The notes beneath the pieces were generated by a model. The model was given only the letters and a program-made list of their open reading frames with translations, was not told where the DNA came from and searched no databases. From the NCBI GenBank assembly GCA_949318235.1, contig OX439137.1, positions 14,211,291-14,275,290 of the forward strand: DNA of 64,000 bases, written 5' to 3'. Numbering within the stretch: the first letter of the stretch is position 1; every line of letters begins with the position of its first letter. A program made the translations under genes and the position numbers. This DNA is from Ecdyonurus torrentis (Eukaryota; Arthropoda; Insecta; Ephemeroptera; Heptageniidae). Of this stretch, positions 55 through 39,190 are shown one piece after another.

Positions 55-413
55 ATGAGATAGCTTGCAGTGTACTAGAAGTTCTCAAGTAATCTAGCCA
101 CATAAGAAACTTCTATCATTTTTGCATTGTTGAGAAGTCACGATTGTCATTTAAATGAATGTTATGTTTGTGAAGTTTTCAACAATATAGAAATCATTTG
201 GTCAGAGTACATGGTATCTACAGACTTAAGGATAGCTCTTCAAAGGCCACGACACAGAATCTTGTATTTTTTAAAGAATTTTCTCCAAAGATGCTACATA
301 TTTTTTGCTACAAGCTAAAAGGAAAGCATACTATCACACTAGTCAAGCTAACTTACTGCTGCAAACTAAATCAATTGTGAAATTTCAACTTGGTGATCTC
401 TACGTGAATAAAA
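55..413 (+). other. Possible exon edge and 5' leader of the repeat/zinc-finger gene
   Basis: A pyrimidine stretch ending in TTTCAG at 54 looks like a 3' splice acceptor, so an exon may begin at 55. The sequence after it has early stops in all forward frames, so it is probably 5' UTR or the tail of a gene lying off the window. Bases about 160-215 resemble intron sequence near 11880-11945 of the next zinc-finger gene, so part of this stretch could itself be intronic. Confidence 0.4.
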
Positions 414-3400
414 ATGTCGCTGCCTGCTGACAGTAACATAGAAACCAATGATTCCACCATGATTTCTTCTAGTAACATAAACATAGGTGGTAATATAGGA
501 GGAAAAATAAGTGGTAAATTGGGAGGCAAATGGGGAGGTGAAACAGGTGATAACATTGGAGGTAAATGGGGAGGTGGAATGAGCAATGAATGGGAAAGTG
601 AAACAGGAGGTAAAATAAGTGGCAAATGGGGAGGTAAAACAGGTGGTAAATGCGCAGGTAAAATGAGTGGTAAGTGGGGAGGTAAAACTAGTAGTAAAAT
701 AAGTAGCAAATGGGGAAGTAAAAAACAAGGTGAATGGGAAAATGATACCAGTGGTAAATTGAGTGGTAATTGGGAAGGTGGAGCAAGTGGTGAATGTGAA
801 GGTGAAATAAGTGGTAAATGGGGAACTGAAATGAGTGGTAAATGGGCTGGTGAAGCAAGTGGTAAAAGAGGAGGTAAATGGGAAAGTGATGCAAGTGGGA
901 AAATAGGAGGAAAATGGGAAAGTGGTAAAATAGGAGGGGCATGGGAAAGTGATGCAAGTGGGAAATGGGGAGGAAAAACAAGTGGTAAAATGGGAGGGAA
1001 ATGGGAAAGTGATGCAAGTGGGAAATGGGGAGGAAAAACAAGTGGTAAAATGGGAGGGAAATGGGAAAGTGATGCAAGTGGGAAATGGGGAGGGAAAACA
1101 AGTGGTAAAATGGGAGGAGATTGGGGAGGTGAAGCAAGTGATGAATGGGAAGGTGAAACAAGTGGTGAATTGGGAGATGAAATAAGTGGTGAATGGGAAG
1201 GTGACATAATCCGGAAAATGGGAGGTAAATGGGAATGTGATGCAAGTGGGAAAACAATTGGTAAAATGGGAGGGCAATGGGAAAGTGGTGCAAGTGGGAA
1301 AATGGGAGGAGATTGGGGAGGTGAAACAAGTGATGCAAGTTGTATAATGGGTGGAAAATTAGGAGTTGAAACAAGTGGTAAAATGGGAGGAAAATGGGTA
1401 AGTAATGCAAGTGGTAAAATCGGTGGAAAATTAGGAGTTGAAGCAAGTGGCAAAATGAGAGGGAAATGGGCAGGTGAAACATGTGGTGAAAGAGGGAAAT
1501 GGGAAAGTGTTGCAAGTGGGAATACAAGTGGTAAAATGGGAGGACAATGGGAAAGTGGTGCAAGTGGGAAAATGGGAGGGAAATGGGAAAGTAATGCAAG
1601 TGGGAAATGGGGAGGAAAAACAAGTGGAAAAATGGGAGGAGATTGGGGAGGTGAAGCAAGTGATGAATGGGAAGGTGAAACAAGTGGTGAATTTGGAGAT
1701 GAAATAAGTGGTGAATGGGAAGGTGATATAAGCCGGAAAATGGGAGGTAAATGGGAATGTGATGCAAGTGGGAAAACAATTGGTAAAATGGGAGGGCAAT
1801 GGGAAAGTGGTGCAAGTGGGAAAATGGGAGGAGATTGGGGAGGTGAAACAAGTGGTATAATGGGTGGTAAATTAGGAGTTGAAACAAGTGGTAAAACGGG
1901 AGGAAAATGGGTAAGTAATGCAAGTGGGAAAATCAGTGGAAAATTAGGAGTTGAAGCAAGTGGAAAAATGGGAGGGAAATGGGAAGGGCATACAAGTGGT
2001 AAAATGGGAGGGAAGTGGGAAAGTGATGCAAGTGGGAAAATGGGAGGAGATTGGGGAGGTGAAACAAGTGATGCAAGTGGTATGATGGGTGGGAATTTAG
2101 GAGTTGTAACAAGAGGTAAAATGGGAGGGAAATGGGAAAGTAATGCAAGTGGTAAAATCATTGGAAAATTAGGAGTTGAAGCAAGTGGTAAAATGGGAGG
2201 GAAATGGGAAAGTAATGGAAGTGGTAAAATGGGAGGAGATTGGGGAGGTGAAACAAGTGGTATAATGGGTGGTAAATTAGGAGTTGAAACAAGTGGTAAA
2301 ATGGGAGGAAAATGGGTAAGTAATGCAAGTGGGAAAATCAGTGGAAAATTAGGAGTTGAAGCAAGTGGAAAAATGGGAGGGAAATGGGAAGGGCATACAA
2401 GTGGTAAAATGGGAGGGAAGTGGGAAAATGATGCAAGTGGTAAAATGGGAGGAGATTGGGGAGGTGAAACAAGTGATGCAAGTGGTATGATGGGTGGGAA
2501 TTTAGGAGTTGTAACAAGAGGTAAAATGGGAGGGAAATGGGAAAGTAATGCAAGTGGTAAAATCATTGGAAAATTAGGAGTTGAAGCAAGTGGTAAAATG
2601 CGAGGGAAATGGGAAAGTAATGAAAGTGGTACAATGGGAGGTGATTGGGGAGGTGAAACAAGTGATGCAAGTGTTATAATGGGTGGGAAATTAGGAGTTG
2701 AAACAAGAGGTAAAATGGGAGGGAAATGGGAAAGTAATGCAAGTGGTAAAATCGGTGGAAAATTAGGAGTTGAAGCAAGTGGTAAAATGGGAGGGAAATG
2801 GGAAAGTGATGCAAGTGGTAAAATGGGAGGTGATTGGGGAAGTGATGCAAGTGTTATAATGGGTGGGAAATTAGGAGTTGAAACAAGAGGTAAAATGGGA
2901 GGGAAATGGGAAAGTGATGCGAGTGGTAAAATGGGAGGAGATTGGGGAGGTGAAACAAGTGATGCAAGTGGTATAATGGGTGGGGAATTAGGAGTTGAAA
3001 CAAGAGGTAAAATGGGAGGAAAGTGGGGAAGTAATGCAAGTGGGAAATTAGGAGTTGAAACAAGTGGTAAAATGGGAGGAAAATGGGGAAATAATGCGAG
3101 TGGCAAATTGGGAGGAGATTGGGGAGGTGAAACCAGTGATGTAAGTGGTATAATGGGTGGGGAATTAGGAGTTGAAACAAGAGGTAAAATGGGAGGAAAG
3201 TGGGGAAGTAATGCAAGTGGGAAATTAGGAGTTGAAACAAGTGGTAAAATGGGAGGAAAATGGGGAAGTAATGCGAGTGGCAAATTGGGAGGAGATTGGG
3301 GAGGTGAAACCAGTGATGTAAGTGGTATAATGGGTGGGAAATTAGAAGTTGAAACAAGAGGTAAAATGGGTGGAAATTGGGGAATTAATGCGAGTGGCAA

Positions 3401-6400
3401 ATTGGGAGGAGATTGGGGAAGTGAAACAAGTCATGCAAGTGGTATAATGGTTGGGAAATTAGGAGTTCAAACAAGTGGTAAAATGGGAGGGAAATGGGAA
3501 AGTGGTGCAAGTGGCAAAATGGGTGGAGATTGGGGAGGTGAAACAAGTGATGCAAGTGGTATAATGGGTGGGGAATTAGGAGTTGAAACAAGTGGTAAAA
3601 TGGGAGGAAAATGGGGAAGTAATGCGAGTGGCAAATTGGGAGGAGATTGGGGAGGTGAAACCAGTGATGTAAGTGGTATAATGGGTGGGAAATTAGGAGT
3701 TGAAACAAGAGGTAAAATGGGTGGAAATTGGGGAAGTAATGCGAGTGGCAAATTGGGAGGAGATTGGGGAGGTGAAACCAGTGATGCAAGTGGTATAATG
3801 AATGGGAAATTAGGAGTTGAAACAAGAGGTAAAATGGGTGGAAAGTGGGGAAGTAATGCAAGTGGGAAATTAGGAGTTGAAACAAGTGGTAAAATGGGAG
3901 GAAAATGGGGAAGTAATGCAAGTGTAGGAGGTAAATGGAGAAGCAGTGCAAGTGGTAAAATGGGAGGAAAATGGGGAAGTAATGTAAGTGGTAAAATCGG
4001 TGGGACATTAAGAGTTGTAAAAAGTGGAAAAATTGGAGGGAAATGGGATAGTGATGCAAGTGGTAAAATGGGAGGAGATTGGGGAGGTGAAACAAGTTAT
4101 GCAAGTGGTATAATGGGTGGGAAATTAGGTGTTGAAACAAGTGGTAAAATGGGAGGAGATTGGGGAGGTGAAACAAGTGATGCAAGTGGTATAATGGGTG
4201 GGAAATTAGGAGTTGAAACAAGTGCTAAAATGGGAGGGCAATGGGGAAGTAATGCAAGTGGTATAATGGGTGGGAAATTAGGTGTTGAAACAAGTGGTAA
4301 AATGGGAGGAGATTGGGGAGGTGAAACAAGTTATGCAAGTGGTATAATGGGTGGGAAATTAGGAGTTGAAACAAGTGGTAAAATGGGAGGGCAATGGGGA
4401 AGTAATGCGAGTGGTAAAATCAGTGGAAAGTTAGGAGTGGAAATAAGTGGTAAAAAGGACGGGAAATGGGGAAGTGGTACAAGTGGTAAAATAGATGAAA
4501 AATTAGGAGTTGAAACAAGTGGTAAAATGGGAGGGAAATGGGGAAGTGATGCAAGTGTAGGAGGTAAATGGAGAAGCAGTGCAAGTGGTAAAATGAGAGG
4601 GAAATGGGGAATGCCTGGTAAGAAAATGCCTGAAGATGATTTTGAAATATCAGTAGAACTTGAGAAACTAATACAAGAGGCTGAAAAACTGTCAGCAGCA
4701 GGCGTAGGTGGTAAAATTGATGCACAAACTTTCCATGATAGTGTTAATATGATAGATGAAACACCATTCAATTTAAATTGTCCATCGGAGAAAGAAAAAT
4801 CTGAAGAATTAGATAATTTAATAAAGGAAGTTGAAAATTTACCATTAGATAAGGAGATTGTTTCTTCTCTAACAACTAGTTTATCAGAAATTTGTGAGTT
4901 GGAAGCCAATAAAGATACAGTTTCTGGAAAAGTTATACCAAATAAATCAAAAAGTGTCGTGGAAGTAGGTAAGCCAGGTGTTGATAATGTCAGAGCAGAA
5001 GCTTCTTATGAATTAAGGATTGAATCTACAGTTGCATTTCATATTGGTAAAGGATATCTATATTTACTTGATAAACTTGAGAGTTCTGAAGTTGTGGATG
5101 TGAATACTTCAATTGAGAAAAAAACAACAGTCAAAGCTGATGATCTAAAGTCACCTAGTACGTCTTGTGCAGGCCAAGAAAAAGAGCAGCCTCAAGTAAG
5201 CTTTATTTTATGGGAAGGTTTACTTGAATTGCAAAAAAATAATAATAATAATAATAATTTCATGTTTTAGTTACTGTTCTTTCTCAAGTGGTAATTTAAA
5301 GTCAAACTATTAACTTTGATTTTAAAGGAATAAAAGTATAGAGAAAAACTGTAAGGGCCTTATACAGTCCAGTAAAAAATCTTGCTAGCACAGATATAAT
5401 AATAGCTTTTGGTATAAGACTTCATTAAATATAGAGCATACTAAACTTCATGCCTTCATCTGTCCATACTGACAGAAAAATCACTAGTAATTTGTATTAT
5501 CATGATACAATTAATCACTAGGTCAAGAGGAAGTGCTATTGACTTACCTTGAAAGGGATGTGTAGTGTCATGATGTGTATGTATTAAATTTTGTCTTACT
5601 TTGTGTTTCAGATTAAGAAACCTCGTCCACAAGGAAGTGTAAAAAAAGTGGTTCCAAGATTTGATACTACAGTTGTACATCACTTCAAATGCAGCAACTG
5701 CTCTCACAGCTACCCAGAACAAAGACAATTAGACTTTCACTTACTTATGATACATGGAATTAAAAAGTATCAGTGTTATAAATGCAAATACGAAACTAGT
5801 AGTAAAAAATGGCTGGAAACTCATGTTTCACAAGAACATCTTAAACGACAGGTTTTTAGATGTAGCATATGTAAGGAACAAGTACCAAACTTAAGATACT
5901 TAGAGTCACATTTAAAACAAACTCATCATATTAAAAAAGTACATAAATGTCTGATCTGTTGTCAAATATTCAAAACTCTATCAGCTTTAGTTAATCATGA
6001 GAATTTTATCCACAAAGCAAGAGGATATGCTCCTAAAGCAGATCCTAAATTCATTACTTTTCCTTGTAACAAGTGTAAAAAAGTATTTACCCGAGAAGGA
6101 AATCTTGTTGAGCACTTGAGAAGTCATAAAAGAAGAGTTAAACTGAAATGTGAATTTGTTGAATGTAAACAATTACGATTCTATTCAAAATTAAGTTACA
6201 TCAAACATATAAAAGAAATTCATAAATCTAAAGCTTGTCGTAATTGCTTAAAAGCATTAAAATCAAATGCACAATTTGTCTATCATTTAAGTGTAGACTC
6301 AGAATGTTTCCAGTATTATGAAACTATTTCAAATCCTGGTGCAAAGAAAAAGAAAGATAATAATATCAATGATGATGAAGCTGAATATAATGATTTATTA

Positions 6401-14812: not shown

Positions 14813-15418
14813 CCCTTGAATTAACTTAGGGATCATTTGAAAAAATACATCAATTTCGTGAAAATGAAAGATTGCCATGTGTATGATTGCCTGGCAGTTG
14901 GATAATCATTTTTTCAAAAAAAACAAAAAAAAAAAAAAATGCTTCTGAGATTATAAAATTTAACTGAATGGTTGTTAGCAAAATATGATTTTTAAGAAAT
15001 AAACTTAATTTTGGCATTTTAACTTTTTGTATGAAAAATAGAATTTTAAAATTTGTCAGTCTTTCTATATTTACAATTCCATGTTTCTGTATTTACCATG
15101 TATTATTGTATGCATTCATATAGCAAAACTATAGCTCATAAAATTGTATAATATATAATGTTGTATCACAATAACTGTTTCATCAAACTACTTTTTAAGG
15201 AAAATATTATATTTATGATGTTTATTATTATTATTGTGAAGGTATATGACATATTTTAATAAAATTAAAACAACAATAAAGGAGCTCTAGTAAAAAATAC
15301 AATGTTAAATATCAATAACATCATTTCTCTGCTAGAAGGTAATTGGTAATTGAAATAGTATTCTAATTATTTGACCCTGTGTTGCTTTTTTTTATATAGG
15401 TATATACCTATATATATT
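14813..15418. other. 3' UTR and intergenic sequence
   Basis: AT-rich sequence with AATAAA motifs near 14997 and 15260-15275. No gene is supported. A short TA-rich stretch with TAGGTATATACC lies just before the hammerhead element. Confidence 0.5.
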
Positions 15419-15499
15419 GGGGTATAGTGTCAATGTAAAATACGATATACCTAACATCTCGCGTTCTCACAAACCGGGTTTGCGCGCGCGATTGTTCAA

Positions 15500-15575
15500 C
15501 CAATCAGCGCGAGCAGCTGCGGGGGCATCGCGTATAAAAACGCGGCTGCCACTTGCTTCCTCAGCTCAGTCAGTT
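15500..15575 (+). promoter_or_regulatory. Pol II-type promoter within the hammerhead element
   Basis: CCAAT lies at 15500-15504 and TATAAAAA at 15533-15540. Initiator-like TCAG/TCAGT sequences lie at 15561-15575, about 30 bp after the TATA box, as expected for arthropod core promoters. The local GC content is far above the surroundings. Transcription would run into the ribozyme about 60 nt downstream. The call rests on motifs and spacing only. Confidence 0.6.
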
Positions 15576-15623
15576 AGCAGATGTGGTGTGAGCCATCTCT
15601 AGCTGTACAGAGCTCTCTGCCGA

Positions 15624-15668
15624 GCCTTACTGATGAGTCCTAGGTAAAGGACGAAACCGGTCTAAGGC
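15624..15668 (+). ncRNA. Hammerhead ribozyme
   Basis: All core elements are present in order. Stem I is GCCUUA (15624-15629) with UAAGGC (15663-15668). The core CUGAUGA is at 15630-15636. Stem II is GUCC/GGAC with an 8-nt loop. The core GAA is at 15653-15655. Stem III is ACC/GGU (15656-15661) with no loop. C at 15662 is the cleavage nucleotide, so cleavage falls between 15662 and 15663. Outside stem I, CUCU (15615-15618) can pair with AGAG (15671-15674), leaving an asymmetric internal loop of the sort used for loop-loop contacts with stem II. The self-complementary stem III ACCGGU suggests activity as a dimer, as known for short-stem-III hammerheads of mobile elements. Confidence 0.9.
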
Positions 15669-15685
15669 CAAGAGTAAGTCTGATA

Positions 15686-15796
15686 CAGGGGGGGCTCACT
15701 AGCAGCTGTGACGTCACGCGTTCCGGAAAATGCAATGTTAACCTTATGGGCAAAACGATTCACGTGACGTCACAACAGCCTTATGAGCTCCCCCTG
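15686..15796. mobile_element. Nested fold-back element with 9-bp target duplication
   Basis: The element begins CAGGGGGGGCTCA and ends TGAGCTCCCCCTG. It is flanked on both sides by the same 9 bases, AGTCTGATA (15677-15685 and 15797-15805). TGACGTCA occurs in each arm (15709 and 15765). It inserted into the hammerhead element 18 bases after the ribozyme. The 9-bp duplication is longer than the 8 bp of hAT elements. Confidence 0.8.
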
Positions 15797-16088
15797 AGTC
15801 TGATACTGTTTTATAATGTTGTGCCTTTGATGTAGTGTGAGAACGTGAGATGTTAGGTATATCGTATTTTACATTGACACTATACCCCTCATCCCTTTTA
15901 ACGTCTATTTTTATTTAGCGCAAGCTATAATGATTTGCATCCCTAGTCCCAATTTACTATTTAAATTAGAGAATTTTCGCGTTTTATTAATTTTCAATTC
16001 AACGTGCTCTAATCTCTACCAACTATTTTCTAATTATTTTTTTAACGTAATTAATACCAACCGCGATGTTTTTTTCCTATATATTATA

Positions 16089-16089
<1 letters not shown>

Positions 16090-16166
<77 letters not shown>

Positions 16167-18019: not shown

Positions 18020-19336
18020 ATGGCAGCTGCTAATGTAAATTTGCCTTACAGCTGTAGGCTTTGTTGTAGTGAAAGAGCTACATTAAGGAACATTTTTGAC
18101 CCACAGTGTGCAGCTAATCAAATACCTGCCAAAATTTCATATTGTGTCTCTGTTCAAGTTAAGGAAAATGAAGTTTTCCTATCTAAATTAGTGTGTGATG
18201 AATGTCTTAATAAATTAGAATTATTTTATAAATTTAAAGTTAGTTGTGTATCCATAAATAATAAATTAATGATACAACGTAAACAATGGGAGTCTTCAAA
18301 ACAAAATATTGCGCCTGTTTCAAATTCAGTGAATATCAAAGAGGAGCTAAGGGAAGAACATGAAAGTATTGTTCCTTCAGAGATGGTGTTTTGCCAGCTG
18401 AAAGTAGAGGAAGAAGAAGAGGAGGAACAAGACATAAATGAAGACAGTTTTGTTTCTACTAATTCTAATGGTGATTCAAATTCAGATAAAATTCCCCAAC
18501 TAGCACCACCACGAAAGAAGAAGAAGTTAAATACTAGAAAACATGATTGTGATTCATGTGATAGAAAATTTAGATCCCCAGCAGAACTACGTGAACACAT
18601 AAAAATAAGACACTCGGAGTCAATAGAAAATCCATTTGTTTGTAATATTTGTAATAGATCATTTTTATTTGAAAGACGTTTGCGTCTTCATACAAAAACA
18701 ATACATGAAAAAGTTTGTAATTTTATTTGTGATTTTTGTGGTAAAGGTTATGTACAAAAATATCGTCTGACTCATCATATGTTAAACAGTCATACTAGAG
18801 AACAAAACTTTCAGTGTACTATTTGTAAAATGAAATTTGTAAATAAGTTAACATTAAAATCTCATATTACAAATAAGCACGAAGAACCACAATTTCAATG
18901 TGAACTTTGTGATAGAAAATTTGCCACTAAAAAAGCTCTTAATTTTCATCAAGTTACTCATATAAATATAGATCAACGTGAAAAATTTGATTGTAATATA
19001 TGTAACAGTACATTTTTAAGTAAAAAAAGATTTAAAATGCATCTTAAATCTCATACAGGAGAGGTAGTTTTCAAATGTCATTTATGTGATAAAAGATTTA
19101 CAACAAAAGCAAGTTTAAATAGTCATTTAATTATTCATTCTGGAGTTAAGAATTTTGTTTGTGATGTTTGTGGCAAAGCATTTGCAGAAAGAAAAAATTT
19201 GATGGTTCACAATCGTATTCATACTGGAGAAAAACCATATCAATGTAAATTTTGTCTTAAAGAATTCAATCAGAAATCATCATATAATACACATGTTAGG
19301 AAGAATTCTTGTAGAATGAAGAGGAATAATTCATGA
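18020..19336 (+). CDS. ZAD domain plus nine C2H2 zinc fingers, transcription factor
   Basis: A single open exon encodes 438 residues. A ZAD lies at about residues 10-85, with its four zinc ligands visible (C12, C15, C59, C62). Residues 130-141 are a Glu run. PPRKKKKLN at about 162-170 is a likely nuclear signal. Nine C2H2 units follow from residue 176 to about 430, including TGEKPYQC-type linkers late in the array; the last ends in Cys instead of His. ZAD proteins are a large insect family of DNA-binding factors that dimerise through the ZAD. The combination is diagnostic of the family but not of an individual orthologue, so no gene name is given. A 5' UTR intron probably lies just upstream. 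Confidence 0.9.
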   Translation: MAAANVNLPYSCRLCCSERATLRNIFDPQCAANQIPAKISYCVSVQVKENEVFLSKLVCDECLNKLELFYKFKVSCVSINNKLMIQRKQWESSKQNIAPVSNSVNIKEELREEHESIVPSEMVFCQLKVEEEEEEEQDINEDSFVSTNSNGDSNSDKIPQLAPPRKKKKLNTRKHDCDSCDRKFRSPAELREHIKIRHSESIENPFVCNICNRSFLFERRLRLHTKTIHEKVCNFICDFCGKGYVQKYRLTHHMLNSHTREQNFQCTICKMKFVNKLTLKSHITNKHEEPQFQCELCDRKFATKKALNFHQVTHINIDQREKFDCNICNSTFLSKKRFKMHLKSHTGEVVFKCHLCDKRFTTKASLNSHLIIHSGVKNFVCDVCGKAFAERKNLMVHNRIHTGEKPYQCKFCLKEFNQKSSYNTHVRKNSCRMKRNNS

Positions 19337-19463: not shown

Positions 19464-19846
19464 AGCCCTTGTCAAGTTACTTTTTTTATCATTTAGAATA
19501 CTAGTTATATTATAATTACCACACCTTATTATCCATGAATCAGACACCACCACTTTGATTTTGTATTTATTTTCATTTTGACTGTTATATCACGTATCTG
19601 ACGTCACAATGTACCGCTGCCAATCACAGTCACCGCTCTGGTCACGTGATAAATTTAAGCCCCTCCCTCAAGTTCTGAACCCCTATCATGGCCCCATCAG
19701 TACATTGTGACGTTAGATGAGTGAAATAACTGCCAAAATGAAAATAAATACAAAATCAACATGTTGGTGTCTAATTCATGGATAATAAGGTATGGTAATT
19801 ATCAATCTAGTATTCTAAATGATAAAAAAGTAAATTAACAAGGGCT
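19464..19846. mobile_element. TTAA-flanked fold-back element A
   Basis: Termini are AGCCCTTGTCAAG and its complement, directly bordered by TTAA on both sides. The arms are about 170 bp and nearly identical. TGACGTCA is at 19599, with a decayed partner in the right arm. It lies just past the ZAD gene stop. Confidence 0.8.
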
Positions 19847-19976
19847 TTAATGATATAAACAAAAATGATAAGAGAAAACCTTACTATAGTGAAGAAAGTC
19901 CCATAGCTCAATGAAAATCTTGCTATCACAGAAAATTGTGGAAGTCAATTTCTATAGTTGAAAAAGTAATGCTTAA

Positions 19977-20348
19977 AGTGATACACAACCCTAAAAATAA
20001 GTATTTTTTGTTCTATTCTCAAGTAATTCAATAGAAATTATTCGTTTATTTGACTTTTCCAGCCCGCGGAATAAGCAAGCCCCGCGAGGGTAAAGAGGAA
20101 ATCTCTGACGTCAGAGATTTCCTTTACTGTGTGAGTAAAAAATCTGTACACCTTCTCAGGTAAGCTTACCAGGTACAGCAGGGGGTACACATTTTTTACA
20201 CTCATAGTAGAGGGGCGTGTACTCTATATCGTTACCCTCGCGGGGCTCGCTTATCCCGCGGACTAGAAAAGTCAAATAAACGACTGATTACTATTGAATT
20301 GTTTTAGGAAAGAACAAAAAATACTTATTTTTAGGGTTGTGTGTCGCT
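19977..20348. mobile_element. TTAA-flanked fold-back element B
   Basis: Termini are AGTGATACACAACCC and GGGTTGTGTGTCGCT, bordered by TTAA (19973-19976 and 20349-20352). Long arms include the GC-rich sequence CCCGCGAGGGTAA. TGACGTCA is at 20106. Confidence 0.8.
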
Positions 20349-20352
20349 TTAA

Positions 20353-22374: not shown

Positions 22375-22378
22375 TTAA

Positions 22379-22687
22379 AGGCGTAAAACACTTTGAACAA
22401 AAAAGTAGCGTAATATCCTAACAAACCTGAAAATCAACGTTGATTTGGCCAGTCATTGATTTCTAATTTATTTTCCATTCACAAAATGCCGCTGCCGGTC
22501 ACTGACGTCACAGCTCGCCCGGTTTACTTGCACGAGTTGCACGTGGGAGGACCAGGCGAGCTGTGACGGCAGTGGCATTTTGTGAATGGAAAATAAATTA
22601 GAAATCAATGACTCCAGCCAAATCAACGTTGATTTTCAGGGTTGTTAGGATATTACGCAACTTTTTTGTTCAAGGTGTTCTACGCCT
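22379..22687. mobile_element. TTAA-flanked fold-back element C
   Basis: Termini are AGGCGTAAAACACTTTG and its near-complement, bordered by TTAA. TGACGTCA is at 22503, with a decayed TGACGGCA in the other arm. The same family as 49399-49667. Confidence 0.85.
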
Positions 22688-23190
22688 TTAATTATAAGGT
22701 ATCGGACAATTTTTCCCTAATTTATAAATAATGTTGAAATTTTTCAGTCAGAAAGAAGTCTATAAAAATATTTGATATAAAAACAGGAAAATTGGGGAAT
22801 GGGAGATAGTAATGAGCTTTCACTGACCGACACAAAGGTAAAGAAAAATTTCTAACCCAGACCAAAATTGATTTATTAGCATTTGTACTAGTTGCTCATA
22901 GTACACAACAATTCGAACATACATACCATGGAGTTATTATACCTTTCAGCTTTCCGCTAACCCTTTCAGCTTTGGTTAGAAATTTTTCTATACCATGGGA
23001 TCTTGGCGTACCTGTCAGTTCATTCTCGTTACTATCTCTCATTCCTCAATTTTTTCTCATCAAAGTGTTTTTCTATTAAATCTTTTTAATTATAAATCAT
23101 TGCATAGTTGATTTTTCTTTCATATCTGTATTATTATAATCTAACAAATAAAATGAGCATAAAAAAAAAAACAGATTAGGAGGAAATACA
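22688..23190. other. Intergenic sequence
   Basis: AT-rich. A short imperfect inverted repeat (CTAACCC... and GGTTAGAAATTTTTCT) lies at about 22850-22995. No gene is supported. Confidence 0.4.
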
Positions 23191-38041: not shown

Positions 38042-39190
38042 TGTGTGTGTGTGTGTGTTTTGCAGAACAACAACAAATTAAAAGAATGGAAAATTGAAGA
38101 CATAGTTTGGTATTTAGGATTTGAACCAAATCGTAATCCAAATACAAAGTAAGCTAAAATAAACTTTTTATTTTTTGTTCATTATAAAAAAAATAATATT
38201 TAAAATTTAACTACGTATATATATATATATGATAAAAATTTCATTTTTGTCTTACCTTCTGTAAAACAACTGGGCTTTCACTCGCTGCTTAATTTGATGA
38301 TAAAAATAACACACAACACCAAAACTTGTCACTATATAAATTAATAAAATACTCAATTCACAGTTTTTAAAAATCTATATACATAGCTATGTTATATTCA
38401 CACACAATTGTGTGTGAATATAACATAGCTATGTATATAGATTTTTAAAAACTGTGAATTGAGTATTTTATTAATTTATATAGTGACAAGTTTTGGTGTT
38501 GTGTGTTATTTTTATCATCAAATTAAGCAGCGAGTGAAAGCCCAGTTGTTTTACAGAAGGTAAGACAAAAATGAAATTTTTATCATCATGTCACCTCGCT
38601 CGATATTCAAATTTTCAAACATATATATATATATATATATATTCATTCTACCATGGTAAATAAATAAATTATAATATTTTATTAAAGGTGGACCATCACT
38701 TTCATTGAAAAAGATACAGTCCGTAGTAAAAGGTAATATCAGAGTATATAATTAAATACAATTTTTCAATTTGTATTTTTTTTAGCTTATAACCATTGAT
38801 CGAAATAAATTTACAATAATAAAATATACTTCTATATATTAATGATGGAATTATTAGTATATATTCCTACTAAATTCATTCAAATATATATTTTTAAATA
38901 TAATTAATTTTTTATATTATATTCCATATAAAATTAAATAACAGTATACTTATATTTTAGTGGAAAATTCATAATATAATTATAATTTTTTCTGACTTGA
39001 TAATGTTTATCAATTATTATTATTAATATATTATGCTACATATATTTTGTGCAGATTGAAAGAGCGAGCATACTTTGGATTTACTTTAGGTGGTACCAGC
39101 AAAGAAACATTGATACAATGGAGCTACGCATTTCTGCATACAGTTTACATAAAGCAGATCTCAGATGCAATTTCCAAGAAATCAAAATAA
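32493..39190 (+). CDS. RhoGAP15B: RhoGAP15B/ARAP-like protein: PH-PH-RhoGAP-RA-PH
   Basis: Twelve exons join in phase to 939 residues: 32490-33523, 33790-33976, 34505-34640, 34757-34975, 35122-35334, 35474-35664, 36364-36597, 36711-36935, 37205-37324, 38066-38148, 38688-38732, 39055-39190. Residues 1-235 are disordered, with two YVDM motifs and class II SH3-type prolines (PLPPSR, PPLPIK). PH modules lie at about 250-395 and 398-495. The RhoGAP domain is about 508-682; its arginine finger lies in EGIYRR (about R533), and LKLYFSELPEPL plus NMMDASNLAYVW are conserved. An RA fold lies at about 717-797, and a third PH at about 813-925. The order matches ARAP proteins without the ArfGAP domain, as in fly RhoGAP15B. 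Expected role: inactivating Rho GTPases at phosphoinositide membranes. Poly(A) signal at 39305. Confidence 0.88.
34181..34485. mobile_element. TA-flanked MITE in RhoGAP15B intron 2
   Basis: The termini GGGCGTGTGCGC and AACACCC are flanked by TA. The body shares AATGAATAACATTKCT and AGCATAGGACAAACGT with the element at 61553-61777. Confidence 0.65.
36040..36265 (+). mobile_element. Possible LINE 3'-end fragment
   Basis: GC-richer sequence ends in GCAATAAAGCCTATTTTGAA followed by a TTGAATTTAATTGAATTGAA-type tail. A second ACAATAAACCCTATTTTGAG occurs at about 36320. Such endings are typical of non-LTR retrotransposon 3' ends, but no reverse transcriptase is present. It lies in an intron. Confidence 0.35.
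37950..38060. repeat. TA then GT microsatellite beside a splice site
   Basis: About 85 bp of TA and about 20 bp of GT end directly at TTTTGCAG, the acceptor of exon 10 (38066). Confidence 0.9.
38231..38584. repeat. Perfect 354-bp palindrome in RhoGAP15B intron 10
   Basis: Two 177-bp arms are exactly complementary, with no spacer. The centre is CACACAATTGTGTG at 38407/38408. The arms start GATAAAAATTTCATTTTTG. No TTAA or other target duplication is evident. It has no similarity that I can see to the TTAA family. It could be a very young fold-back element or a sequencing/assembly fold-back artefact. Confidence 0.9.

What the first reader, a model, noticed from the sequence alone, without database searches (positions are those of the whole stretch)
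15624..15668. Complete hammerhead ribozyme with a palindromic stem III
Every invariant position is present (CUGAUGA, GAA, A-U before the cleavage C) and all three stems pair. Stem III is only ACC/GGU with no loop, so a monomer should be poor and a dimer through ACCGGU likely. Outer pairing CUCU/AGAG gives an internal loop that could contact the stem II loop. This is a full self-cleaving RNA inside an insect mobile element.
Basis: partly seen in the sequence, partly recalled or inferred. Interest (0 to 1): 0.88.

Follow-up and report, generated by a model that had tools for sequence, protein, structure and literature searches.

The report
Ribozyme in non-coding Penelope-type retroelement
The window holds a structurally complete self-cleaving-RNA motif that sits in a small non-coding jumping element, repeated many times in this insect-type genome, whose insertions look as if the machinery of Penelope-like retrotransposons made them.

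Summary
15624-15668 has every core base of a type I hammerhead, with cleavage expected between 15662 and 15663. Rfam gives 30.0 bits (E 3.6e-4 in 10 kb), below the gathering score of 34. The genome has 1,110 exact copies of the core-plus-stem-II pattern, control 0. Other families keep the fold with changed stems; in two of them stem III is again a palindrome. Activity was not tested.

The carrier is a non-coding retroelement with a ~901-nt unit and a TATA/initiator-like promoter 61 nt before the ribozyme. Its insertions look Penelope-like: 18 of 29 loci have two copies head to head, none tail to tail. 3' ends fall at two sites ~32 nt apart; 18 of 19 head-to-head insertions use the distal site on exactly one arm. 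11 of 29 flanking repeats are 13-16 bp.

The window copy is one small insertion, hit by a nested ~111-bp element. A decayed Penelope-type endonuclease frame exists in this genome. Ribozymes in Penelope elements are known; a non-coding ribozyme-bearing family with the Penelope insertion signature is the new part.

The parts
15403..15417 (.). left copy of a 15-bp target duplication TATACCTATATATAT
   Evidence: lies in AT microsatellite, so this single case is only suggestive
15419..15471 (-). short inverted arm of the element (unit positions 648-700), head to head with the main arm
15470..16088 (+). main arm of the element, unit positions 402-901, interrupted by the nested insert 15686-15796
15533..15539 (+). 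TATAAAA; 30 nt downstream is an initiator-like TCAGCTCAGTCAGTT, predicted start A15563
   Evidence: sequence; promoter function inferred
15563..15623 (+). predicted 61-nt leader before the ribozyme, part of the 123-nt block (unit 478-600) identical between the two subfamilies
15624..15668 (+). type I hammerhead ribozyme; cleavage expected between 15662 and 15663
15656..15661 (+). palindromic stem III ACCGGU
15615..15618 (+). 5' side of outer helix CUCU, pairs with AGAG 15671-15674, leaving an internal loop in stem I
15671..15674 (+). 3' side of outer helix AGAG
15677..15685 (.). left 9-bp duplication AGTCTGATA of the nested insert
15686..15796 (.). nested ~111-bp MITE-like insert with inverted ends CAGGGGG...CCCCCTG; none of the other listed matches of the unit covers it
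15797..15805 (.). right 9-bp duplication AGTCTGATA of the nested insert
16055..16088 (+). tail region: one 3' end site of the family lies just before the AACCGCGATG stretch (unit ~868), the other at the end of the region (unit ~901)
16085..16099 (.). right copy of the 15-bp target duplication

Best explanation
The ribozyme belongs to a non-coding retroelement of ~901-nt unit length. Its RNA starts at a TATA/initiator promoter 61 nt upstream of a dimer-type hammerhead (inferred). The element is copied in trans by the protein of a Penelope-like element (inferred). Reverse transcription starts inside the transcript at one of two sites about 32 nt apart and is primed from both strands of a staggered cut. 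Two 5'-truncated cDNAs are then joined head to head between target duplications, often of 13-16 bp (the structures are shown, the process is inferred). The hammerhead probably cuts multimeric transcripts into units by pairing two palindromic stems III (inferred). The window copy is one small such insertion, later hit by a ~111-bp MITE-like element.
For: Head-to-head arms in 18 of 29 loci, tail-to-tail in 0. Of 19 head-to-head insertions with both outer ends in view, 18 have the distal 3' end on exactly one arm: 14 pair it with the proximal end (855-875), 4 with another end (the window copy among them); 1 has two proximal ends, 0 have two distal ends. Flanking repeats of 9 bp or more in 18 of 29 insertions against 5.9% of mismatched flank pairs. 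In the literature, Adineta Penelope elements have head-to-head inverted pLTRs and a 31-bp tail optionally present on one of them (PMC3846280, passages and Discussion read). The Anolis Penelope protein cuts and extends both strands and has two start sites bounding the 'tail' (PMC11167929, main text read). Between the two subfamilies the longest unchanged run is 123 nt and ends at the ribozyme's last base; 2 differing columns in 156 nt against 123 in 745 (borders chosen after seeing the data). Three families keep stems I and II with standard pairs; stem I differs by 2, 4 and 4 double-sided changes in the three comparisons; each has a palindromic stem III. A Penelope-type endonuclease frame is in the genome.
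Against: No intact Penelope protein was found. The only frame (L087) has lost its reverse transcriptase part, and its name rests on recalled motifs plus relatives with sub-threshold GIY-YIG scores; Pfam does not recognise the frame itself or its closest relatives, and the structure prediction failed (mean pLDDT 39.6). Its upstream hammerhead is of another family. The loci studied were mostly the best matches to the query, so older copies are under-sampled. None of 46 segment starts lies within 5 nt of the cleavage site or of the predicted start, so the insertions carry no trace of cleavage. In the Anolis system ribozyme mutants insert normally in vitro, and no RNA-seq reads begin or end at the cut (PMC11167929). 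In that paper the two strands did not differ in start site. The tail hairpin does not fold clearly better than shuffles in any of four sequences tested. Likeness between arms could come from gene conversion, and 2 of 16 loci do not show it. A fourth hammerhead set lacks a perfect palindrome in stem III.
Confidence: 0.72

Rival explanations
1. A metazoan retrozyme: ribozyme-cut units are circularised and the circle is copied for several laps by a borrowed reverse transcriptase, giving tandem identical units in both arms. (This concerns the template step and is compatible with the best explanation.)
For: In the young subfamily, units of one array are identical or nearly so: 0 mismatches in all 15 pairs of L063, in 1, 1 and 3 pairs of L066, L067 and L068, in 7 of 10 pairs of L064 (4 mismatches in the other 3, all with one central unit), and 1 in 827 in L065 (L063). 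Two whole units at the L033 locus are identical over 901 nt, while other loci differ by at least 0.63%. Segment starts are spread round the unit with none at the cleavage site, as expected of a circle.
Against: No RNA data. Transcripts of an already homogeneous array would give the same result, and the subfamily is young (between-array mean 0.48%, minimum 0). In older loci tandem units differ by up to 1.5% (6 in 389 at C20:9158355, 3 in 201 at C1:10232535), though less than between loci on average. The unit (901 nt) is over twice the 170-400 nt reported for animal retrozymes (PMC7229834).
Confidence: 0.35
2. The ribozyme is idle in mobility: uncut multimeric transcripts are the template and the motif serves only the 5' leader or is inherited from an autonomous Penelope element. 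(Also a statement about the template step.)
For: None of 46 segment starts is near the cut. In Anolis Penelope, ribozyme mutants insert normally in vitro and RNA-seq shows no ends at the cut (PMC11167929).
Against: The leader-ribozyme block holds the longest unchanged run between subfamilies and the fold is kept by paired changes between families, which points to selection on it.
Confidence: 0.4
3. A DNA transposon or MITE with 53-bp terminal inverted repeats that happens to carry a hammerhead.
For: In the window alone, 15419-15471 and 15836-15888 look like terminal inverted repeats.
Against: In the other copies the matching sequence runs on to unit position ~868 or 901, 5' ends vary from copy to copy, and the inverted arm is absent or of a different extent.
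Confidence: 0.03
4. LINE-mobilised SINE-like repeat or a satellite.
For: 5' truncation, fixed 3' ends and target duplications also fit LINE-type target-primed reverse transcription; tandem units fit a satellite.
Against: Head-to-head pairs in 18 of 29 loci, two 3' sites with the distal one used once per insertion and dispersed copies on many contigs are not usual for either (recalled).
Confidence: 0.1

Closest known systems
Small dimeric hammerheads of Penelope-like elements (Cervera and de la Pena 2014; Lunse, Weinberg and Breaker 2017; neither paper is held; known only through citations and passages in PMC7761336, PMC7229834 and PMC11167929)
   Same: Type I fold with minimal stem III, expected to act as a dimer; pLTR-like tandem context
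   Different: The carrier is non-coding; the frame from the ATG inside the core is closed after four codons
Metazoan non-LTR retrozymes (PMC7229834: first of six parts and passages read; PMC7761336: one section and passages read)
   Same: Non-coding tandem units with a type I hammerhead, low GC (39.6%), target duplications
   Different: Unit 901 nt against 170-400; minimal stem III; own promoter-like element; Penelope-type insertion anatomy, whereas the review says these retrozymes show no motif that reveals their helper
Penelope elements of Adineta vaga and Anolis (PMC3846280 passages and Discussion; PMC11167929 main text)
   Same: Inverted head-to-head pLTRs and an optional tail on one arm (Adineta, 31 bp); two start sites bounding a 30-40-bp tail and AT-rich targets (Anolis)
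   Different: Those encode RT and GIY-YIG endonuclease; this unit encodes nothing recognisable

Membership tests
Rfam RF00163 Hammerhead_1 | conserved catalytic core and three pairing stems | tested here: met
   sequence; all 45 model positions aligned; stem pairs checked
Rfam RF00163 Hammerhead_1 | score at or above the gathering threshold (34 bits) | tested here: not met
   30.0 bits; no hit at gathering level; so not filed as an RF00163 member by score, only as built like one
Rfam RF00163 Hammerhead_1 | self-cleavage | not testable with these tools
   needs in vitro transcription
Penelope-like element | ORF with telomerase-like RT and GIY-YIG endonuclease | tested here: not met
   longest frame of the unit 86 aa, stop to stop; so the element itself is not an autonomous PLE
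Penelope-like element | tandem or partial tandem units and head-to-head inverted arms | tested here: met
Penelope-like element | optional 30-40-bp tail on one arm | tested here: met
   distal end on exactly one arm in 18 of 19 head-to-head insertions with both ends in view
Penelope-like element | AT-rich target | tested here: inconclusive
   ten chosen duplications are 86.9% AT, but the 64-kb window as a whole is 69.4% AT and no test was made
Penelope-like element | autonomous helper in the same genome | tested here: inconclusive
   decayed C-terminal part in L087 and a trace in L029; the genome-wide search with it did not complete (eight tries)
Metazoan retrozyme | non-coding tandem units with type I hammerhead | tested here: met
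Metazoan retrozyme | unit of about 170-400 nt | tested here: not met
   901 nt
Metazoan retrozyme | circular RNA | not testable with these tools
   no RNA data here

The most novel reading that the evidence does not exclude
A missing link between animal retrozymes and Penelope elements: ribozyme-made circles of a non-coding unit are copied for several laps by a Penelope-type enzyme that primes from both target strands of one break, each strand using a different start site on the same RNA. This would answer which machinery moves ribozyme circles in animals and would show a fixed division of labour between the two start sites.
Probability: 0.3. Interest if true: 0.72.

Novelty: new variant of a known kind. 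Interest (0 to 1): 0.55.

Why it matters
The review literature says that animal retrozymes carry no motif that reveals their helper and names Penelope elements as likely candidates (PMC7761336, PMC7229834). A non-coding, ribozyme-bearing family with about a thousand copies of its core (1,073 of the 1,110 pattern hits have its first loop base; only the first 100 were listed) that shows the Penelope insertion signature turns that guess into something testable. The 'one distal, one proximal start' pattern is also a concrete constraint on how Penelope enzymes work.

Tried and rejected
Terminal inverted repeats in the window as a DNA transposon: rejected by the other copies. Free-energy folding as evidence: z -1.28, not used. 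Tail hairpin as a recognition element: four sequences folded, none clearly better than shuffles (z 0.08 to -1.02), not claimed. GIY-YIG by Pfam genome-wide: two hits, one SLX1-like (recalled likeness), one in a 1,496-aa frame of another kind; the later finding that Pfam misses the Penelope-type frame shows that this search was too weak. Structure prediction of the relative P0003: mean pLDDT 39.6, discarded. PDB sequence search with P0001: no match. Exact 33-base ribozyme pattern in viral contigs: 0 (that tool may leave out near records). The 3'-end counts of family 2 are not used, because the query ended at the distal site. The family 1 unit behind the L087 endonuclease frame was first read as its pLTR (note); L029 shows related downstream sequence continuing without it, so it is more likely a separate insertion. 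A fuzzy-motif script timed out. A counting script stopped on an error after ten loci and the window; the rest was run with a looser identity cut-off (84 instead of 88%).

Sampling: the 62 alignments include overlapping loci, so some copies count twice. In one search (L001-L030 only) matches under 85% identity were dropped before grouping. In one search one head-to-head pair per locus was chosen by hand for the 14 of 16; two of the 18 head-to-head loci (the window and C1:51170944) overlap too little to compare. In one search, 7 of 36 stretches were dropped because the insertion ran to an end of the fetched stretch, and L063 was split by the grouping. In some searches stretches were examined; 3 (L002, L014, L035) were left out of the 19 because an end was cut off. 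Not examined there: one-directional loci (L004, L006, L010, L013, L015, L017, L018, L020, L027-L029, L065, L066), loci covered by another stretch (L001, L008, L009, L024, L026, L031, L032, L034, L037), and loci fetched for other reasons (L038-L062, L069-L087). L063-L068 were picked from the first 100 listed places as arrays with several units. The 46 segment starts were copied by hand.

Full report
WHAT IS THERE. The segment 15624-15668 is a structurally complete type I hammerhead. Rfam's Hammerhead_1 model aligns over its whole length with 30.0 bits and E 3.6e-4 in a 10-kb search. That is under the curated cut-off of 34, and nothing in the window passes a cut-off. Free-energy folding alone is not persuasive. 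The case for a real ribozyme rests on recurrence and covariation.

RECURRENCE. The window lies in a 503-Mb genome with an arthropod-type zf-AD gene at 18020-19333 (that zf-AD is arthropod-typical is recalled). The pattern of core plus stem II (CTGATGAGTCC, 3-12 any, GGACGAAA) occurs 1,110 times; the reversed control occurs 0 times. 37 of these have loops that do not start with T; the places of the other 1,073 were seen only in a list of the first 100. A second pattern with other stem II sequences gives 268 hits against 46 in the control. Rfam's model finds 32 matches in the genome, 27 over the cut-off, with only 74 of 32,802 candidates scored.

COVARIATION. Family 1 (the window): stem I GCCUUA/UAAGGC, stem III ACCGGU. 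Family 2 (L048): GCCAUG/CAUGGC, ACAGCUGU. Family 3 (L036): GUUACA/UGUAAC, stem II GCCUU/AAGGC, stem III ACGU. All stem I and II pairs are standard in these three. Family 1 differs from families 2 and 3 by 2 and 4 double-sided changes in stem I, with no one-sided change. In each of the three, stem III is a perfect palindrome. A fourth set (L072-L076 and others) has stem I ACCAUG/CAUGGU, stem II GGCC/GGCC in most, and a stem III stretch such as ACAGCGUUGU that is not a perfect palindrome; in L071 (family 3 type) the stem III stretch reads ACAU. So the palindrome is common, not universal. Rfam calls family 3 type III at 30.7 bits, below that family's cut-off of 48.5. Cofolding slightly favours a double hammerhead joined through the palindrome.

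THE CARRIER. Copies show a unit of about 901 nt (reference: L033:7404-8304) with no frame above 86 aa. A TATAAAA (15533-15539) and an initiator-like sequence 30 nt on predict a start at 15563, 61 nt before the ribozyme (inferred). Two subfamilies, about 10% different in BLAST alignments, share a 123-nt identical run, unit 478-600, which ends at the last base of the ribozyme. Within unit 445-600 there are 2 differing columns in 156 nt, against 123 in 745 elsewhere (Fisher 3e-9; the borders were chosen after looking). In an older copy (L039) the same block is also less changed (11 in 156 against 203 in 745), though its ribozyme has lost core bases. 57 of 62 aligned copies have the 69-nt ribozyme region unchanged, with some loci counted twice and with best matches over-represented.

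HOW IT INSERTS. Among 29 loci, 18 have two copies head to head, none tail to tail, and 11 run one way. 3' ends fall near unit 868 and near 901. In 19 head-to-head insertions with both outer ends in view, exactly one arm ends at the distal site in 18: 14 with a proximal end on the other arm (L003, L005, L007, L011, L012, L022, L023, L025, L030, L033, L036, L063, L064, L067), and 4 with another end (window 700, L019 729, L021 771, L068 795). One (L016) has two proximal ends; none has two distal ends. Direct repeats of 9 bp or more flank 18 of 29 insertions, against 5.9% of mismatched flank pairs; 11 of the 29 are 13-16 bp. Those in AT repeats (window, L013, L022, L065) are weak evidence singly. 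L063, an array of three plus three units head to head, has a 14-bp repeat ATTTAAAATGGTAG at both ends (read from the flanks; the automatic scan missed it because it split the array).

COMPARISON. This matches what is described for Penelope elements. Adineta: inverted pLTR, head-to-head order, a 31-bp tail optional on one of the inverted pLTRs, 8-10-bp duplications (PMC3846280, passages, Discussion). Anolis: both strands cut and extended, two start sites bounding the tail, AT-rich targets, ribozyme cleavage not needed for insertion and dependent on the protein, and no reads at the cut (PMC11167929, main text). That paper saw no difference in start site between strands; the one-distal, one-proximal rule found here goes beyond it. 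It is not new as a description of tails, since the Adineta paper already places the tail on one arm.

TEMPLATE. In the young subfamily, units inside one insertion are nearly identical: 0 mismatches in all pairs of L063, L066, L067 and L068; 1 in 827 in L065; 0 in 7 of 10 pairs of L064 and 4 in the other 3. Between these arrays the mean is 0.48%, with a minimum of 0. In the older subfamily one pair of arms per locus was closer than the between-locus mean in 14 of 16 loci (sign test); two loci were not, and tandem units differ by up to 1.5%. This suggests one RNA species per insertion. It does not separate a circle from a homogeneous tandem transcript or from gene conversion. None of 46 segment starts is within 5 nt of the cut or of the predicted start: cut linear units are not visible as templates.

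HELPER. A 143-aa open piece in L087 (1838-2266) resembles the C-terminal part of Penelope endonucleases (motif recalled). Pfam does not name it. Homologues are two unnamed records, not named by Pfam either, and two more remote ones that bear a precomputed PF26215 label and sub-threshold GIY-YIG scores of 13.7 and 19.0 bits. In L087 the frame pieces lie downstream of a pLTR-like stretch with its own hammerhead at 126 and lack the RT part. Family 1 sequence follows about 160-215 nt after the end of protein homology. In L029 a trace of the same protein end lies about 650 nt before a family 1 copy, and sequence related to the L087 downstream stretch continues without family 1. So family 1 is probably not the pLTR of that element. 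A helper of the right kind has probably existed in this genome; a working one was not found, and the genome-wide search for one did not complete.

VERDICT. The ribozyme is complete in structure and conserved; its activity is untested. The element is best read as a non-coding Penelope-type retroelement, intermediate between animal retrozymes and Penelope elements. Searches of the held papers listed hammerheads in Penelope elements and animal retrozymes; in the titles and abstract starts listed I saw no non-coding family with this insertion signature. Two key papers (2014, 2017) were not held, so a prior description cannot be excluded.

Noticed in passing
window 15686-15796: Nested ~111-bp element with inverted ends of about 30 bp by eye (CAGGGGG...CCCCCTG) and a 9-bp duplication, hAT-like in look (recalled). 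Not covered by any other listed match of the unit. Its own copy number could not be searched.
   Followed up: partly
window 38229-38586: Perfect 179-nt inverted repeat with no spacer (358-bp palindrome): MITE-like hairpin, recent inversion-duplication or assembly artefact.
   Followed up: partly
window 408-5270: Open frame of 1,620 aa made largely of degenerate repeats, many with a 36-base period, rich in G, K, S and W.
   Followed up: no
window 19512-19802, 19973-20352, 22375-22691: Three inverted-repeat pairs with 75-124-nt arms at 88-95%, probably MITE-like.
   Followed up: no
L087 1-534 and 8768-9301 (C4:38400300-38409600): Tandem segmental duplication with a period of ~8.77 kb, 100% identical over the 534 nt seen, carrying the decayed Penelope-type frame; the pattern search lists a third hammerhead at the same spacing.
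   Followed up: partly
L062 (C10 around 48233988): A 1,496-aa open frame with a GIY-YIG match (28.7 bits) in an insect-type genome; nature unknown.
   Followed up: no
genome C1:43930177-43932432 and C4:22033787-22034484: Other hammerhead families also recur at regular spacing (730 nt, 673 nt), one of them in head-to-head order.
   Followed up: no
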